From a virus: DNA of 23,147 bases. Positions 1,448 through 22,445 of the stretch are shown piece by piece. The translations under genes and the position numbers were made by a program. The notes under the pieces were generated by a model. That model did no database searches. It was not told where the DNA came from and was given only the letters and a program-made list of their open reading frames with translations. Location of the stretch: the IMG/VR virus record IMGVR_UViG_3300019487_000098, positions 1 through 23,147 of that record, one strand, 5' to 3'. Every line of letters starts with the position of its first letter. The first letter of the stretch is position 1.

Positions 1448-1704
1448 GCCGCATCCCCCGCGATCGGCGTATCTGGTCTCAATCGCACCACGCGAACAGG
1501 CCGAGGCCTACTCTCCCGGTCCTGCAGCACCATCGCCCACCCTTCTGCGAAGTACTCGACAAGCACGCCGCGAAAAACGTGCCCGTTATGCTCGCTCCAC
1601 AGGGACGTGAACTCGACGCGGGCGCCCGCCGCAAGCTGACTGGCAAGCTCTGTTCTGGCGCGCGGCTCCCACCACGCGGTTTCGTCGATCAGTTCGTCAG
1701 CCAT
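1444..1704 (-). CDS. Small phage protein downstream of the large terminase (86 aa)
   Basis: The ATG at 1704 overlaps the end of the large terminase gene by 8 bp, and the stop overlaps the start of the next small gene. The product begins MADELIDETAWWEPRARTEL. It is a compact protein with a central section (VEFTSLWSEHNGHVFRG, then VLVEYFAEGWAMVLQD) that looks like a small beta-rich domain and ends in basic and hydrophobic residues. The same frame stays open further upstream, but only inside the terminase, so the internal ATG is preferred. Function unknown; the overlap on both sides places it firmly in the packaging operon. Confidence 0.65.
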   Translation of the reverse strand: MADELIDETAWWEPRARTELASQLAAGARVEFTSLWSEHNGHVFRGVLVEYFAEGWAMVLQDRESRPRPVRVVRLRPDTPIAGDAA

Positions 1705-4387
1705 AGAAGCTACTCCGCCGCGCGATCTTCGGGTCGAACAGCGACAAATCATCCTCGTTATCATCGTCGTCCTCAAGCTCCAGGTCCATGTGCTTGCGCA
1801 TGTACTGCAGCGCGATTGCCGCAGAGGCGATCTCGTCGTCGAAGTCCACGTCCGGGAACTTGGCGCACACGTCAATGAACGACTTCGCCCACGGTCGGTC
1901 AACGTACCAGATGGAGCCCTTCTCCAGCGGCAGACTGGCCATGTGTGCCCGATAAACCAAGTCGCCTTGGATTTTCACGGCGCGCACTGGCAGCTTCTTG
2001 GCCCGCAGCTCCTTAACCAGCGAATGACCAGAGGCTTTCTTCTCGACCAGGATGCGATCCGGCTCCCACAGCTGGCCCGCCTCGATCGCCTCGTCGCGCA
2101 GTTCGCCGAACCCAGGGCGCCACTTCTTTCGCTCGAGCAGCAGCGCGTTGACCCGCTCGGGACCGTAACCGATACGTCCCTTGTTGCCCTCAATCAGGTC
2201 CTGGTTGAGAAACAATCCCCACGTTGTGCGAACGCTGAATGAGTCCTGCTCACCTTCCTCGAACGCCGTGTCGTACGCTTGAATGACTTCGATGAACTCC
2301 GGCAACGGCCGCTCACTCTTGCGGTATTCCAGATGCCACTTAGGCCATGCCCACTTGCGCCACCACTTGAGCTTCCAGATCTTGCCGCCGGCGCCCTGCG
2401 GGTTCTGCTGATACTGTGCCTGATAGACGCGATCCGAGATTGCATCCCTGATCGCCTCGATCGTGTCCTCGTCATAGCGCGACGGGCACAGCAATGAGCC
2501 GGGCTTCTCCCGCGGATCTCGAAAGATCGGTTCGCCCTCTGGCCCCTTGCCGCGGTTTCGATACGTGATGCACTTGCGGCTGCCGTCGTACTCCATGGCG
2601 AGTCGAAGTACGACCCAACGCTTTTCCTCCTTGTCGAGCACGTGGTGCAGGACATCCTGCGCGTGTGTTGCCTGGGCGACGTAGATACGCCGGGCGGTGT
2701 TCGGATTGTTCACACGGGAGCGCCAGGCGCCGTCGTGCCAGGAGATCACCGCCTTGCGGGCGGCCTCATGCTCGACTTCGGCCGCATTGTGCGGATCATC
2801 TAAGCAGTTCGCAACTAATACTCCCCGCTCCCCGGCGAAGAAATTATGATTGCGCTCCACAGTGATGCAGTAGGTCTGGTTCGTGTGACCAAGCGAACGA
2901 ATGAGCGTTGGCTTCCGATTCCTGGATTTGATGGGCTTTACAGCGTGTCTGATCTCGGACGCATTCGTACCGAGGAACGAATTACAGCTTCCACCTCGGT
3001 TAGCGGTCGTAGGCGTATTAAACGGCGAATCCTTCGAACGCCAGATGACGGTAGAGGCTATGCGCGGTTCAACGCCAGGAAGGACGGTCGCTCTCATCAC
3101 CTGTTCGTGCATCAGGTCGTGATGTACACCTTTGTAGGCCAACCGCCAGCCGGATGCGAGGTCCGGCATCGCGACGGAAACAGTTCGCGAAACCACCTGT
3201 CGAATCTTTGCTATGGCACGCGCGCTCAAAACATCGACGACGCCAAGCGGCACGGAACGTTCCCCCGCTATGAACTTCGGCCAGGCGCGAAGCTGACCAA
3301 GTCCAAGGCGATCAAGATCGCTGCAAGTACCCAGAGCGCAGCAATACTCGCGCGTCGTTATGGGATCAAACCATCCGCCGTCTATCGGATTCGAACAGGC
3401 GATACGTGGGAGGCTGTCACGCGCCATATACGGTTGAAGAGCTATCCCAGGGTTTTCTACCAAGGTGGCCGCGTCAAGCTCACAAAGGCGAAGGTCATCG
3501 CACTCATGCGATCGAGTGAAAGCAACCGTGTTCTGGGCCACAAGTTCGGGGTAAGTCACCGCGCGATTTCGATGATCCGGCAAGGGCGCTCCTGGAAGCA
3601 CGTCGCTCGGCCGTAGCTGCTGCGCCTCCACCCATCCACGATTGAGCGTCAACAGACGATGGTCGCCCGTGCAATGCACGGCGGAGCCGTCGTCGCACTC
3701 CACGGCAATGATCTTTCGCCCAGGATTTTGGTGAAACGCCGTGATCCGCTGATAACTTGCAGCTCCAGTTGATTCATCGATCGAGAGTGCAAGCGCCCTG
3801 ATTCGCTCATGGACGATCTTTCCAATCGGCAGTAAGCCGCGATCGGTCCACACCAGCTCATCGCCGGGTAAGCACAAATAGTTGCCGCCGAGGCCGGTCG
3901 TTTTCGAGCCCACGCTGATCGTGGTGCGATAACCGCCGGCGGTAGTCGAAAAGCGATCGACGCGGTTCTCGTCCGAGAGAATCATCACGTCCGGATAGCG
4001 CGACTGATACCACTCCGATTCCACGAGCCGGCGGTTCTTCGCCGCATCGATCTTGGCCAGGTCGGCCGCGTAGGACGCGCATAGGAACTGCTCTTCCGGA
4101 TGATCGGCCCAGACCCATGCGGGAAACGCCACCGAAACGATCGAGGACTTCGAGGACCTCGGCGGCACCATGATCATGAGGTTGCGGATGTCACCGAGCA
4201 CAACGAACGCCAGGTGGTCGCACAGGGCATCAATGTGCCAAGCCGGCACGAACGGCGCCGGATCGATCAGCGGCCAGGACGTGCGAACGAACTTGCGAAG
4301 GGAACGCCGACAGGTCTCAGCGGTGACCGCGGTGTAGTAGCGCTCGACCCGCTGCGCGGGCGTGAGATCAGCAAATTGTTGCAGCAC
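1697..4387 (-). CDS. Terminase large subunit interrupted in frame by an intein (precursor, 896 aa)
   Basis: The precursor starts with GTG at 4387; an in-frame TAG lies immediately upstream, so no earlier start exists. The N-extein (residues 1-171) carries a Walker A-like VPPRSSKSS motif (75-83). The C-extein starts at C528 with CLDDPHNAAE, which completes the Walker B region (hydrophobic residues then DD). After removal of residues 172-527 the protein is 540 aa, normal for phage packaging ATPase/nucleases. The nuclease half shows the acidic positions YDTAF, LVEKKASG and FDDEIAS. The protein cuts concatemeric DNA and drives it into the prohead with the small subunit and the portal. Because the intein sits in the ATPase core, splicing should be required for packaging. 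The overlap with the next gene is 8 bp. Confidence 0.93.
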   Translation of the reverse strand: MLQQFADLTPAQRVERYYTAVTAETCRRSLRKFVRTSWPLIDPAPFVPAWHIDALCDHLAFVVLGDIRNLMIMVPPRSSKSSIVSVAFPAWVWADHPEEQFLCASYAADLAKIDAAKNRRLVESEWYQSRYPDVMILSDENRVDRFSTTAGGYRTTISVGSKTTGLGGNYLCLPGDELVWTDRGLLPIGKIVHERIRALALSIDESTGAASYQRITAFHQNPGRKIIAVECDDGSAVHCTGDHRLLTLNRGWVEAQQLRPSDVLPGAPLPDHRNRAVTYPELVAQNTVAFTRSHECDDLRLCELDAATLVENPGIALQPYMARDSLPRIACSNPIDGGWFDPITTREYCCALGTCSDLDRLGLGQLRAWPKFIAGERSVPLGVVDVLSARAIAKIRQVVSRTVSVAMPDLASGWRLAYKGVHHDLMHEQVMRATVLPGVEPRIASTVIWRSKDSPFNTPTTANRGGSCNSFLGTNASEIRHAVKPIKSRNRKPTLIRSLGHTNQTYCITVERNHNFFAGERGVLVANCLDDPHNAAEVEHEAARKAVISWHDGAWRSRVNNPNTARRIYVAQATHAQDVLHHVLDKEEKRWVVLRLAMEYDGSRKCITYRNRGKGPEGEPIFRDPREKPGSLLCPSRYDEDTIEAIRDAISDRVYQAQYQQNPQGAGGKIWKLKWWRKWAWPKWHLEYRKSERPLPEFIEVIQAYDTAFEEGEQDSFSVRTTWGLFLNQDLIEGNKGRIGYGPERVNALLLERKKWRPGFGELRDEAIEAGQLWEPDRILVEKKASGHSLVKELRAKKLPVRAVKIQGDLVYRAHMASLPLEKGSIWYVDRPWAKSFIDVCAKFPDVDFDDEIASAAIALQYMRKHMDLELEDDDDNEDDLSLFDPKIARRSSFYG
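2807..3874 (-). mobile_element. Class-1 intein (356 aa) in the Walker B region of the large terminase
   Basis: The intein runs from C172 to N527 of the precursor and is followed by C528 as the +1 nucleophile. Block A is CLPGDELVWTDRGLLPIGKI. Block B contains T240 and H243 in VHCTGDHRLLTL, then NRGWVEAQQL. Block F is YCITVERNHNFFAGE, and block G is GVLVAN before the downstream Cys. The first residue, the TxxH motif and the terminal Asn fit a class-1 splicing mechanism. The penultimate residue, usually His, is Ala. No LAGLIDADG endonuclease is seen in the intein's own frame. The roughly 240 residues between blocks B and F match no domain I know and are the antisense translation of an HNH endonuclease gene on the plus strand. 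Boundaries were deduced from motifs and from restoration of the Walker B motif. Confidence 0.92.
2846..3616 (+). CDS. HNH homing endonuclease encoded antisense inside the terminase intein
   Basis: This 256-aa protein has the architecture of phage homing endonucleases. A NUMOD4-type motif (ERWLPIPGFDGLYSVSDLG, residues 20-38) is followed by an HNH_3-type nuclease core at about 84-130, with H89, a segment HRDGNSSRNHLSNL that includes H108, N112 and N116, and N129. Two tandem HTH modules follow (about 149-190 and 210-250), each starting KLTKxK and ending IRxGxxW, for target recognition. An in-frame stop at 2816 limits the start to ATG 2846 or to a downstream GTG near 2884. The Shine-Dalgarno is weak, and only a loose TAATAC (2816-2821) could serve as a -10. 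The gene lies wholly within the intein but on the other strand, in exact codon register with the terminase frame, and is visibly less GC-rich than its surroundings. Confidence 0.9.
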   Translation: MIALHSDAVGLVRVTKRTNERWLPIPGFDGLYSVSDLGRIRTEERITASTSVSGRRRIKRRILRTPDDGRGYARFNARKDGRSHHLFVHQVVMYTFVGQPPAGCEVRHRDGNSSRNHLSNLCYGTRAQNIDDAKRHGTFPRYELRPGAKLTKSKAIKIAASTQSAAILARRYGIKPSAVYRIRTGDTWEAVTRHIRLKSYPRVFYQGGRVKLTKAKVIALMRSSESNRVLGHKFGVSHRAISMIRQGRSWKHVARP

Positions 4388-4520: not shown

Positions 4521-4784
4521 TCACGAGGCGTCATCGACGGCCTGATCGATCCTTGCTTTACGCGCGATAATCTTGCGCGCAGCGCCGTAGGCTGACAGAT
4601 CGCGTGTCGGGTTCTCGGTCACCTTCGCTGGCGCTCGCTCCCGGCCCTTGCCGTATCGGTCGGGCTCTCGCTCGCCCAGGCGCTCCTTGAGCATGCGCTG
4701 GCGCGTCTCGGGATCGGCCGGACCGACCTTGCGGCGGCCGTCGCCCTGCATTTCGTCACGGATCGATCGATTAGGCATGGTCAT
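4521..4784 (-). CDS. Small charged protein upstream of the large terminase (87 aa)
   Basis: The frame starts with ATG at 4784 (or ATG 4778) and overlaps the end of the upstream gene by 8-14 bp. The product is hydrophilic and rich in Arg, Lys and Glu, for example GRRKVGPADPETRQRMLKER and the C-terminal AARKIIARKARIDQAV. It has no membrane segment. The composition suggests an extended helical, possibly nucleic-acid-binding protein. I do not recognise a family. A 133-bp stretch without a convincing gene separates it from the terminase start; that stretch holds a GC-rich inverted repeat near 4420-4445 and a five-codon frame ending just before the terminase GTG. Confidence 0.6.
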   Translation of the reverse strand: MTMPNRSIRDEMQGDGRRKVGPADPETRQRMLKERLGEREPDRYGKGRERAPAKVTENPTRDLSAYGAARKIIARKARIDQAVDDAS

Positions 4785-5148
4785 CGCCCTCCGAGGGTGG
4801 AGCTTTGGTCAAGGCAGACTCTTGCCGATCCATTTTGCCAGTCTGCTCGTAGCGGTGCTGACGCTCATCGAAATCTGCCGAATAGGCAGCTATCAGCATT
4901 TCGGTGGACTGAATCACCCTCTCAGGACGCAGGTCTTCCGGCCGCAGTGTGGTTCTAGAAACTGTCGCTGGCAGCGACTGCACACATCCAAGTAGACGAT
5001 TAATTTTTTCCTGCTTCTGGATGAACAGCTCCTCCATGAACTCTTCCTTTACGCGCCGCAGGTAGAGCTCACGACTCAGTTGCCGGACCTCGTACAAGTA
5101 CGAGAATTGCCGGAGACGACGTAACCACCGCTTCAGTCGAGTGAACAT
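4771..5148 (-). CDS. Coiled-coil-like hypothetical protein (125 aa)
   Basis: The start at ATG 5148 is preceded by a good ribosome binding site (GGAGAA, about 6 nt upstream). The longer reading from 5202 would run into the tRNA and is not supported. The N-terminus is strongly basic (MFTRLKRWLRRLRQF). A long predicted helix with heptad-like spacing follows (VRQLSRELYLRRVKEEFMEE, then LFIQKQEKINRLLG). The C-terminal half is acidic and ends SEGDDHA. It lies between a tRNA-Tyr gene and a small protein in the packaging operon. Function unknown. Confidence 0.6.
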   Translation of the reverse strand: MFTRLKRWLRRLRQFSYLYEVRQLSRELYLRRVKEEFMEELFIQKQEKINRLLGCVQSLPATVSRTTLRPEDLRPERVIQSTEMLIAAYSADFDERQHRYEQTGKMDRQESALTKAPPSEGDDHA

Positions 5149-5172
5149 GGACGTTCTCCGCAGGAGTACAAG

Positions 5173-5259
5173 TGGTGGAGCGGGGAGGATTCGAACCTCC
5201 ACGGTCTAGCCGGCCACTGATTTACAGTCAGGCACCCTGCCATTTTAGGTGTCCGCTCC
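5173..5259 (-). tRNA. tRNA-Tyr (anticodon GUA)
   Basis: The minus strand folds as a class II tRNA with an encoded 3' CCA (plus-strand TGG at 5173-5175). The acceptor stem is GGAGCGG paired with CCGCTCC. The D-arm stem CACC/GGTG has a GG-containing loop. The anticodon loop CTGTAAA (plus-strand 5221-5227) carries GTA at 34-36, closed by a 4-bp stem with one mismatch at its base. A long variable arm follows, as expected for bacterial tRNA-Tyr. The T-arm is GGAGG-TTCGAAT-CCTCC. Its 5' end overlaps the last codons of the upstream protein gene. Phage tRNAs often supplement host tRNA during late expression. Confidence 0.93.
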
Positions 5260-20437: not shown

Positions 20438-21835
20438 ATGGGCATTCCTCAATTCAATGACCTGACTGTACTGCGCATGCAGGTCATGAACGTGAAGCGG
20501 GCGCGGCTGATCGACATCACGCCGACCGAAGTCATCACCAAGATTGCTGGCAAGAACAGACAGGGCAAAACCTCGTTCATGAATGGGGTCGAGTGGCTGT
20601 TCGGCGGCAAGGCCAAGATCCAGATGGAGCCGATTCATCGTGGCCAGCAGGTGGGGCGCTTGTACGCGGAGCTCGGCAAGGAGGGCGGGCCGGTGGAGCT
20701 GCTCGTCACGCGCACGCTGCGCATGGTCGACGACGTGGAGTGGACCACCAGTGTCACCATCGAAACGCCGTCGGGGGCGACGTTCGGCAAGGCGCAGACG
20801 TTGCTCGACGCGCTGGCCGGCAACCTGTCTTTCGATCCGTCGTTGTTCTGGAAGATGAAGCCGCGCGAGCAGTTCGACGCATTGCGCTCGTTCGTGCCCG
20901 ACTACGATTTCGATCTCAACAAATCGCTCAATGACGGCGATTACAAGAAGCGCACCGACATCAATCGAGACGCCGACAAGGCCCTCAAGGCCGCCTCACT
21001 GATCCTCGTGCGGCAAGGCACGCCCGATGAGCCGATCGACGTATCGGAGCTCGGCGCGCAACTGGAGGCCGCCGGCGAACACAACACGCAGATCGTTCGG
21101 CGCCGGAACAACCGGACGATCAAGCAGAACGAGGCGGATGCGCTCAGGGTCCAGGCCGAGAGCCATCGCAGGCGCGCGGCACAACTGCGCGCCGAAGCCG
21201 ATGAGCAGGATGTGCTCGCGGAGCAAACACTGGTGGATGCCACCGCGATCGACCAAATGATCGCTGAAGCCCCTGACCTGCCCGAGCCGAAGAGCACCGA
21301 GGCAATTCGTAGGCAGATCGACGATGCCAACGTCATCAATGCCGCCGTCGCCGAGAAGCAACGCAAGGCTCGGCTGATTGCAGAAGCCAAAGAGTATGAA
21401 TGGCAGTCCGACGAGCTGACTGCACGCATGGTCGAGCGCGAGCAGGCGAAGCGGGACGCGATCGCCAAGGGGCATCTGCCGGTGGACGGCCTGGGCTTCG
21501 GGGACGGCTGCATCACGCTGAATGGCTTTCCGCTCGACCAGGCCAGTACGGCCGAGTCCATCGACGCCTGCGTGTCGATCGCCATGGCGCTCAATCCGAC
21601 GCTGAAAGTCATCCTGATCCGCGACGGCTCATCGCTGGATTCGGAGATGCGAGAGCGCATCGCGCTGCGCGCCGGCGAGAAAGGCTATCGGGTATTCATG
21701 GAGTGCGTCGATAACGAGGGCGGTGAGCGCATCACGATCGAGGACGGTGTGGTCAAGGGCGCGCCGCCGCCGCCCGAGGAGGATGCAGCATCGCGGCCGC
21801 GCAAGTCGCTCGGCTCGAGGGGAGCGCAGGCATGA
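20438..21835 (+). CDS. SMC/RecF-like ATPase with coiled coil (465 aa)
   Basis: ATG 20438 has GAAGGG about 10 nt upstream; the longer frame to 20363 adds a non-conserved Arg-rich leader. Walker A is GKNRQGKTSF (G38-F47). Residues 190-360 are a charged helical section typical of a coiled coil (AESHRRRAAQLRAEADEQDV; VNAAVAEKQRKARLIAEAKE-like). The C-terminal half-domain has the Walker B-like LKVILIRDGSSLD and a shortened signature region. The layout fits small AAA_23/RecF-SbcC-type phage ATPases, which cooperate with nucleases in DNA repair. The partner may be the exonuclease encoded downstream. Confidence 0.8.
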   Translation: MGIPQFNDLTVLRMQVMNVKRARLIDITPTEVITKIAGKNRQGKTSFMNGVEWLFGGKAKIQMEPIHRGQQVGRLYAELGKEGGPVELLVTRTLRMVDDVEWTTSVTIETPSGATFGKAQTLLDALAGNLSFDPSLFWKMKPREQFDALRSFVPDYDFDLNKSLNDGDYKKRTDINRDADKALKAASLILVRQGTPDEPIDVSELGAQLEAAGEHNTQIVRRRNNRTIKQNEADALRVQAESHRRRAAQLRAEADEQDVLAEQTLVDATAIDQMIAEAPDLPEPKSTEAIRRQIDDANVINAAVAEKQRKARLIAEAKEYEWQSDELTARMVEREQAKRDAIAKGHLPVDGLGFGDGCITLNGFPLDQASTAESIDACVSIAMALNPTLKVILIRDGSSLDSEMRERIALRAGEKGYRVFMECVDNEGGERITIEDGVVKGAPPPPEEDAASRPRKSLGSRGAQA

Positions 21836-21888
21836 CTGCCACCTGCCTACCGGCCGAGAACCGCCCGCAGCGGTACAAGCACTCGTAA
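21832..21888 (+). CDS. Short frame or truncated gene start before the HNH gene (18 codons)
   Basis: ATG 21832 overlaps the ATPase stop (ATGA) and has GGGGAG about 7 nt upstream, the best ribosome binding site in the area. It encodes MTATCLPAENRPQRYKHS and stops in a TAATG overlap with the HNH gene. It looks like the beginning of a normal phage gene cut off by the HNH insertion, or a leader that couples translation to the HNH gene. Confidence 0.45.
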   Translation: MTATCLPAENRPQRYKHS

Positions 21889-22445
21889 TGGGCGCATTCG
21901 TCGATCTCACGGGCCGCGCATTTGGACGTTTTGCCGTACAAAAAAGAGCTATCAACTCTCGTTGGCGTGAGACTCGATGGGAGTGTCTATGCCAGTGCGG
22001 GCACAGTTCAATTGTCCGTGCCAAGCATCTCTTATCCGGCCGTAGTCGTTCTTGCGGATGTCTGAAGCGCGAACTAGCAGTGGCTCTGCACCGAGTGCAC
22101 GGGCGGACAAAGACGCCTGTATACCGCTCATGGCAGATGATGTTGAACCGTTGCTACAACGAGCGTGGCAAGGATTATCGCCGCTATGGCGGTCGCGGGA
22201 TAACGGTGTGCGATCGGTGGCGTTTCGGAAACGGCGTTCATTCCGGCTTCGAATGTTTCCTCGCGGATATGGGCGAACGGCCACCGGCCACGTCTATAGA
22301 TCGCTACCCGGATAACGATGGCAACTACGAACCCAGAAACTGTCGGTGGGCGACTCAAAGTCAACAGTGCTTCAACAAGTCGCATCCGCGGCGTGCGCGC
22401 AAGCGCGACGCCGGCATGCGCCTAGCGAAGGAGGCGGTTGGATGA
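21888..22445 (+). CDS. Free-standing HNH endonuclease with N-terminal zinc ribbon (185 aa)
   Basis: The start is ATG 21888, in a TAATG overlap and with no Shine-Dalgarno of its own. MGAFVDLTGRAFGRFAVQKR is the usual opening of this phage family. A zinc ribbon follows (WECLCQCG and SCGCL, C33-C58), then YRSWQMMLNRCYN, YRRYGGRGITVCDRW and FLADMGERP. The HNH-type end is SIDRYPDNDGNYEPRNCRWA. Genes of this type are mobile and often interrupt or flank other genes. The gene is visibly less GC-rich than its neighbours, which supports recent arrival. Its last bases supply a strong GGAGG for the next gene. Confidence 0.88.
   Translation: MGAFVDLTGRAFGRFAVQKRAINSRWRETRWECLCQCGHSSIVRAKHLLSGRSRSCGCLKRELAVALHRVHGRTKTPVYRSWQMMLNRCYNERGKDYRRYGGRGITVCDRWRFGNGVHSGFECFLADMGERPPATSIDRYPDNDGNYEPRNCRWATQSQQCFNKSHPRRARKRDAGMRLAKEAVG

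What the first reader, a model, noticed from the sequence alone, without database searches (positions are those of the whole stretch)
2807..3874. Intein whose homing endonuclease is encoded on the opposite strand, nested between the splicing blocks
In known inteins the endonuclease is part of the intein polypeptide. Here the terminase intein has clear blocks A, B, F and G, but the linker contains no endonuclease in its own frame. The same DNA read on the plus strand encodes a complete NUMOD4-HNH_3-HTH homing endonuclease (2846-3616). The two functions of a homing intein, self-removal from the protein and spread of the DNA, would therefore come from convergent genes on the two strands. The terminase is expressed late and leftward. 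An antisense endonuclease transcript would have to be made at another time or from its own promoter. I do not know a described intein with this arrangement.
Basis: partly seen in the sequence, partly recalled or inferred. Interest (0 to 1): 0.95.

Follow-up and report, generated by a model that had tools for sequence, protein, structure and literature searches.

The report
Intein with endonuclease on opposite strand
In this phage and in at least twelve diverged relatives, one stretch of DNA is read on one strand as the middle of a self-splicing insert in the DNA-packaging motor protein, and on the other strand as a complete DNA-cutting homing enzyme, so the two halves of a selfish element are stacked back to back.

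Summary
The finding is confirmed and is a family, not a one-off. The window's terminase large subunit (TerL, 1697-4387, minus) holds a 356-aa class-1-type intein (2807-3874) just before the Walker B aspartates. [quoted passage not shown] Its opposite strand encodes a NUMOD4 + HNH_3 + two-HTH homing endonuclease, a relative of I-HmuI (E 4e-20). Thirteen diverged TerL inteins share the arrangement, always in the same codon register; they include isolate Escherichia phage BUCT618 and loci of 30-66% GC. In all 13, only the TerL and endonuclease frames are free of stops. Zero of about 400 Leu/Ser codons in the endonuclease genes are TTA/CTA/TCA, which would stop the intein (about 71 expected; combined P about 1e-39). 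The endonuclease is the conserved protein: 38% mean identity against about 21% for the linker, higher in all 78 pairs. AlphaFold folds the splicing domain (pLDDT about 90) and leaves the linker disordered (about 20). Splicing, expression and cleavage are inferred, not shown. Closest known: antisense endonuclease genes in group I introns; same-strand out-of-frame HNHs in phage genes and, as seen here, some phage inteins. One relevant 2025 preprint could not be read.

The parts
1697..4387 (-). terminase large subunit precursor, 896 aa, with intein
   Evidence: phrog_38 6e-65, phrog_4758 5e-36; spliced form aligns with intein-free TerLs
2807..3874 (-). intein, 356 aa (Cys1 ... Asn356, then Cys+1 of the C-extein)
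   Evidence: Hint fold in model, Foldseek to NpuDnaE 1e-7
3619..3874 (-). N-terminal splicing region (blocks A and B; T69-x-x-H72 invariant in 8 aligned inteins)
   Evidence: alignment; pLDDT about 90 for most of intein residues 1-97
2807..2887 (-). C-terminal splicing region (blocks F and G; His330, Cys336, Phe345, Val354, Asn356 invariant in 8 aligned inteins)
   Evidence: alignment; high pLDDT for residues 318-356
   Evidence: family alignment of start codons
2903..3067 (+). NUMOD4 domain
   Evidence: Pfam 2.3e-12
3104..3232 (+). HNH_3 nuclease domain with catalytic-type His (3110-3112), His (3167-3169), Asn (3203-3205)
   Evidence: Pfam 1.1e-9; alignment to I-HmuI; column check
3299..3397 (+). 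first helix-turn-helix
   Evidence: weak HTH hits; three-helix unit in model
3485..3583 (+). second helix-turn-helix
   Evidence: three-helix unit in model
2872..2875 (+). Shine-Dalgarno-like AGGT 9 nt before the GTG start, antisense of block F Thr-Tyr-Cys codons
   Evidence: stronger in relatives: AAGGAG in L030, AGGAGGTG in L127
2845..2850 (+). TATGAT, a possible -10 hexamer ending 35 nt before the start, antisense of block F Asn-His-Asn codons; suggestive only, no -35 in the window
2888..3618 (-). intein linker, antisense of the endonuclease gene, no domain, predicted disordered, stop-free

Best explanation
[quoted passage not shown] SHOWN by sequence: a mini-intein splicing domain on the minus strand; an intact NUMOD4-HNH-HTH endonuclease gene on the plus strand; both frames kept open by selection in 13 diverged lineages. 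INFERRED: TerL is translated through the disordered linker as a precursor and splices itself to a 540-aa motor. The antisense gene is expressed from its own transcript, with its start and ribosome site embedded in the antisense of block F. The enzyme nicks or cuts an intein-free terL near the Walker B codons, and repair copies the whole element. Because both products are needed, the endonuclease gene cannot use TTA, CTA or TCA codons.
For: Intein. Endonuclease: (I-HmuI 1u3e, 3.6e-20). Conservation of the arrangement: BUCT618; 30% GC Clostridia MAG; L033. Same register in 13/13, and zero stops in both frames only. Zero TTA/CTA/TCA in 13/13, combined log10 P about -39 by extein codon usage and -42 by own fourfold-site composition; L030 alone 5e-13, L127 8e-7. 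Related free-standing HNH genes do carry these codons, 13 of 14. Endonuclease identity exceeds linker identity in 78/78 pairs and third codon positions vary more than first in 78/78. Two of the 13 lineages (L132, L136) were found with the intein sequence, not the endonuclease.
Against: No expression, splicing or cleavage data. No close intein-plus/intein-minus nucleotide pair was found, and endonuclease and TerL distances are correlated (Mantel r 0.83), so recent homing is not demonstrated. The window has no clear sigma-70 promoter. Three lineages including BUCT618 have Ala in place of the first HNH histidine, with a His next to it. The intein lacks the usual penultimate His (Ala, Ser or Lys in the aligned members), though DnaE-type inteins also do (own knowledge).
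Confidence: 0.88

Rival explanations
1. The plus-strand ORF is a by-product of a GC-rich or constrained minus-strand linker and is not a gene.
For: In GC-rich DNA long antisense ORFs in this register are common; L109 shows one by chance.
Against: The frame encodes two Pfam domains above gathering score and an I-HmuI relative. It is more conserved than the linker in all 78 pairs. It occurs at 31-40% GC in L030, L127 and L033. It has a perfect Shine-Dalgarno in L127.
Confidence: 0.01
2. The endonuclease is a dying passenger: an HNH gene landed in the intein backwards, homed for a while, and is now only kept as an open linker.
For: Three lineages have lost the first HNH histidine; no recent transfer is visible.
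Against: Frame intact in all 13 copies at 28-71% pairwise identity; HNH residues intact in 10/13; c1 and c2 positions conserved relative to c3 in close pairs (0.25/0.15/0.57 for L012-L013), the mark of continuing purifying selection on the endonuclease.
Confidence: 0.08
3. The antisense gene is kept because its product or its RNA regulates terL (late, leftward), rather than for homing.
For: A convergent transcript would oppose TerL expression; placement inside an essential late gene (inference only).
Against: No direct evidence; the protein sequence itself, not only antisense transcription, is conserved; NUMOD-HNH proteins are classic homing enzymes.
Confidence: 0.06
4. Assembly chimera or sequencing artefact.
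For: Most copies are metagenome contigs.
Against: Thirteen independent sequences, two of them with duplicate contigs from other samples, and one deposited isolate genome, BUCT618.
Confidence: 0.005

Closest known systems
TerL inteins of mycobacteriophages (TerL1-a to -e, TerL6-f; PMC5050341)
   Same: Inteins in the TerL ATPase domain; one type (TerL1-e) sits in the Walker B motif; five spliced in a reporter and two cut intein-free alleles.
   Different: The endonucleases described there are LAGLIDADG domains in the intein's own frame between blocks B and F.
ShiLan domain of actinophage methylases (PMC11855218)
   Same: HNH endonuclease hidden in another frame of an open insertion in a phage gene.
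   Different: Same strand, and the authors found no intein or intron splicing features; here a true intein and the opposite strand.
Antisense homing endonuclease genes in nuclear group I introns (Didymium, PMC9548176)
   Same: Splicing element and homing gene on opposite strands of one mobile element; expression and cutting shown for I-DsqI.
   Different: The host element is RNA, so the antisense sequence is not translated and need not stay stop-free.
Same-strand out-of-frame endonuclease ORFs inside phage inteins (seen here: Gordonia phage Clown TerL; helicases of Vibrio phage 1.194.O, MR14, phi673)
   Same: Intein linker overlaps a nuclease ORF in another frame at the same place between blocks.
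   Different: Same strand, +1 frame, different nuclease families (HNH phrog_1271; DUF559/Vsr-like). Clown-type cases may be covered by the unread preprint 10.1101/2025.01.02.630785.
I-HmuI (HNH homing endonuclease of a Bacillus phage group I intron)
   Same: NUMOD4-HNH relative, 3.6e-20.
   Different: Intron-encoded; the window enzyme has two tandem HTH units after the HNH domain.
Fractured genes with split inteins and free-standing endonuclease (Dassa et al. 2009, own knowledge; paper not held)
   Same: Independent endonuclease gene between intein halves.
   Different: There the gene is split and splices in trans; here one uninterrupted TerL frame.

Membership tests
Intein (class-1-type, Hint fold) | Nucleophile at position 1 and block A | tested here: met
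   Cys1 and Pro3 invariant in 8 aligned members
Intein (class-1-type, Hint fold) | Block B TxxH | tested here: met
   Thr69 and His72 invariant
Intein (class-1-type, Hint fold) | C-terminal Asn followed by Cys/Ser/Thr +1 | tested here: met
   Asn356 invariant; Cys+1 in every member examined
Intein (class-1-type, Hint fold) | Penultimate His of block G (usual, not obligatory) | tested here: not met
   Ala in the window; Ala, Ser or Lys in the aligned members. DnaE inteins lack it too (own knowledge), so it does not exclude membership
Intein (class-1-type, Hint fold) | Hint fold | tested here: met
   Model residues 1-97 and 318-356 match NpuDnaE, 1e-7
Intein (class-1-type, Hint fold) | In-frame insertion whose removal restores the host protein | tested here: met
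   Spliced TerL aligns in one piece with CRP-901, 7e-97
Intein (class-1-type, Hint fold) | Protein splicing activity | not testable with these tools
   needs experiment
Canonical homing intein | Endonuclease domain in the intein polypeptide | tested here: not met
   No endonuclease domain in the TerL frame; linker disordered in model
HNH homing endonuclease with NUMOD4 (I-HmuI group) | NUMOD4 + HNH_3 domains | tested here: met
HNH homing endonuclease with NUMOD4 (I-HmuI group) | Catalytic His/His/Asn | tested here: met
   Intact in window and in 10 of 13 lineages; first His replaced in L005, L125, L126
HNH homing endonuclease with NUMOD4 (I-HmuI group) | Site-specific cleavage of intein-free allele | not testable with these tools
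   needs experiment
ShiLan-type hidden HNH insertion | Same-strand out-of-frame HNH, no splicing domain | tested here: not met
   Opposite strand and clear splicing domain

The most novel reading that the evidence does not exclude
A widespread class of inteins in which the homing endonuclease is an autonomous convergent gene on the opposite strand, with its start codon, ribosome site and perhaps -10 box written in the antisense of the conserved splicing block F. Intein removal and element spread are then expressed from different strands and possibly at different times, and DNA coding for both is held open by double-strand selection.
Probability: 0.75. Interest if true: 0.88.

Novelty: new variant of a known kind. 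Interest (0 to 1): 0.82.

Why it matters
It breaks the textbook picture that a homing intein carries its endonuclease in the same polypeptide. It gives a clean natural case of two functional reading frames on opposite strands with a measurable price (no TTA, CTA or TCA codons). It shows that the linker of an intein can be arbitrary disordered sequence, which bears on intein engineering and on how endonuclease genes colonise inteins. It suggests that intein annotation should check all six frames. An isolate, Escherichia phage BUCT618, already in GenBank and annotated only as 'terminase large subunit', makes it testable.

Tried and rejected
Chance antisense ORF: rejected. Linker as the selected protein: rejected, lower identity in 78/78 pairs. 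Split intein: rejected, the TerL frame is continuous. Assembly artefact: rejected. E. coli genome search for a near relative of the BUCT618 locus, to get an intein-plus/minus pair: no match. TerL single-protein scan of viral contigs: no hit. Intein alignment too diverged for a scan; a three-member version worked. Promoter search: none in the window; L005, L030 and L033 have weak sites. TATGRT ending 35 nt upstream in most members follows from block F codons, so I do not count it as evidence. L138, a TerL intein without a visible antisense HNH, ends inside the intein, carries a frameshift and is otherwise close to L125, so uninformative. L005 could not be used in structure prediction, so it was left out. 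Papers Gorbalenya 1998, Gosselin 2025 and Dassa 2009 were not held.

Full report
WHAT IS THERE. The window is a 23-kb linear virus record of 61% GC. Its terminase large subunit runs leftward, 1697-4387. Residues 172-527 are an intein: NCBIfam N-terminal and C-terminal intein models and Pfam Intein_splicing all match, and the exact boundaries are 3874..2807 with Cys1, Asn356 and Cys+1. Removing it gives a 540-aa TerL that aligns in one piece with intein-free TerLs. The best is Roseobacter phage CRP-901, E 7e-97, which has a native Cys at the +1 position, GGDIIC followed by IDDPHN. The linker between blocks B and F has no domain in the TerL frame. On the plus strand the same DNA encodes a NUMOD4-HNH_3-HTH protein, whose nearest solved relative is the intron homing endonuclease I-HmuI.

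A FAMILY. A search of viral contigs with the endonuclease returned contigs whose TerL carries an intein with the endonuclease on the opposite strand. Further searches brought the total to 13 distinct loci after removing near-identical contigs: window; L001 (=L002, L003); L005 (BUCT618); L012; L013 (=L014, L025); L029 and L030 in bacterial MAGs; L033; L125, L126, L127; L132, L136. The last two were found with the intein's N-terminal sequence, not with the endonuclease. In the same set, 53 other intein-like ORFs had no antisense gene of this kind detectable with the family's profile; only one of these, the truncated L138, matches TerL. GC of the endonuclease genes ranges from 31% to 66%.

TWO FRAMES UNDER SELECTION. 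In all 13 the codons of the two genes coincide as reverse complements. Over the endonuclease gene the TerL frame and the endonuclease frame have no stops; the other four frames have 3-40 each. In this register a TTA, CTA or TCA codon in the endonuclease would be a stop in TerL. There are none among about 400 Leu and Ser codons, where the TerL exteins' own usage predicts about 71. Combined log10 P is -39, or -42 from each gene's own fourfold-site composition. In L030, from a Clostridia MAG of 30% GC, 16.6 were expected (P 5e-13). Related free-standing HNH genes carry 1-10 such codons in 13 of 14 cases. This shows that the minus frame must stay open. The protein conserved is the endonuclease: mean identity 0.38 against 0.21-0.22 for the linker; higher in 78 of 78 pairs; differences at codon positions 1, 2, 3 are 0.49, 0.43, 0.67. 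Pairs share ancestry, so the 78 are not independent, but the closest pairs show the same (L012-L013: 0.25, 0.15, 0.57).

STRUCTURE. AlphaFold with seven intein homologues gives pLDDT about 90 for most of residues 1-97 and 318-356, a Hint fold like NpuDnaE, and about 20 for 98-317. The endonuclease gene from GTG 2885 covers intein residues 87-330, almost exactly the disordered part. The endonuclease model has mean pLDDT 78.5, with only residues 1-17 forming a stretch below 50.

START AND EXPRESSION. The family's aligned start codon (ATG or GTG) lies opposite intein His330 in the window and at the corresponding place in most members. A Shine-Dalgarno-like AGGT/AAGG lies about 8-10 nt upstream in most members, as the antisense of block F Thr-[Phe/Tyr]-Cys codons; it is AAGGAG in L030 and AGGAGGTG in L127. 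Promoters are not established.

INSERTION SITES. Cys+1 falls at three nearby codons of Walker B: four before the DD (L005, L029), two before (window, L001) or one before (L012, L013, L030, L033). BUCT618 has Cys where its intein-free relatives MR14 and 1N2-2 have Ala.

CONTEXT. Comparator inteins from other phages show same-strand out-of-frame nuclease ORFs: HNH in the Gordonia phage Clown TerL intein, DUF559/Vsr-like in three helicase inteins. So placing an endonuclease in a frame other than the intein's own seems a repeated solution, of which the antisense form is the most extreme. Published parallels are the ShiLan element (PMC11855218) and antisense endonuclease genes in group I introns (PMC9548176). 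I found no published antisense case in an intein, but the library lacks three papers that could hold one.

LIMITS. Everything about splicing, antisense expression, cleavage and homing is inferred from families. Endonuclease, intein and TerL distances correlate, so transfer between phages is not demonstrated. The BUCT618 clade lacks the first HNH histidine at its usual place.

Noticed in passing
L112 2385-3524 (Gordonia phage Clown TerL, MT771343.1): TerL intein with an HNH endonuclease ORF on the same strand but in the +1 frame (phrog_1271, 2.5e-31); annotated only as terminase.
   Followed up: partly
L120 2754-3542, L122 2658-3395, L119 2652-3296: Helicase inteins of Vibrio phage 1.194.O, Pseudomonas phage MR14 and Corynebacterium phage phi673 contain a same-strand out-of-frame ORF with a zinc-finger-like N-terminus and a DUF559 (Vsr-like) nuclease domain.
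   Followed up: partly
L116 1814-4540 (Salmonella phage S16 uvsW): uvsW split into two genes that appear to carry intein halves with a same-strand hypothetical gene between them, a fractured-gene arrangement.
   Followed up: no
window 5173-5259: tRNA-Tyr gene on the minus strand overlapping the start of the ORF 4771-5202.
   Followed up: no
window 21723-22445: ORF with a C-terminal part resembling phage HNH/AP2-type proteins (ATSIDRYPDNDGNYEPRNCRWAT), possibly a second homing-type endonuclease in the window.
   Followed up: no
L005, L125, L126 endonucleases: Ala at the position of the first HNH histidine with a His one residue on, shared by the BUCT618 clade.
   Followed up: partly
TerL Walker B region in all loci: Three different intein insertion codons within four codons, among inteins with the same type of endonuclease.
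   Followed up: partly
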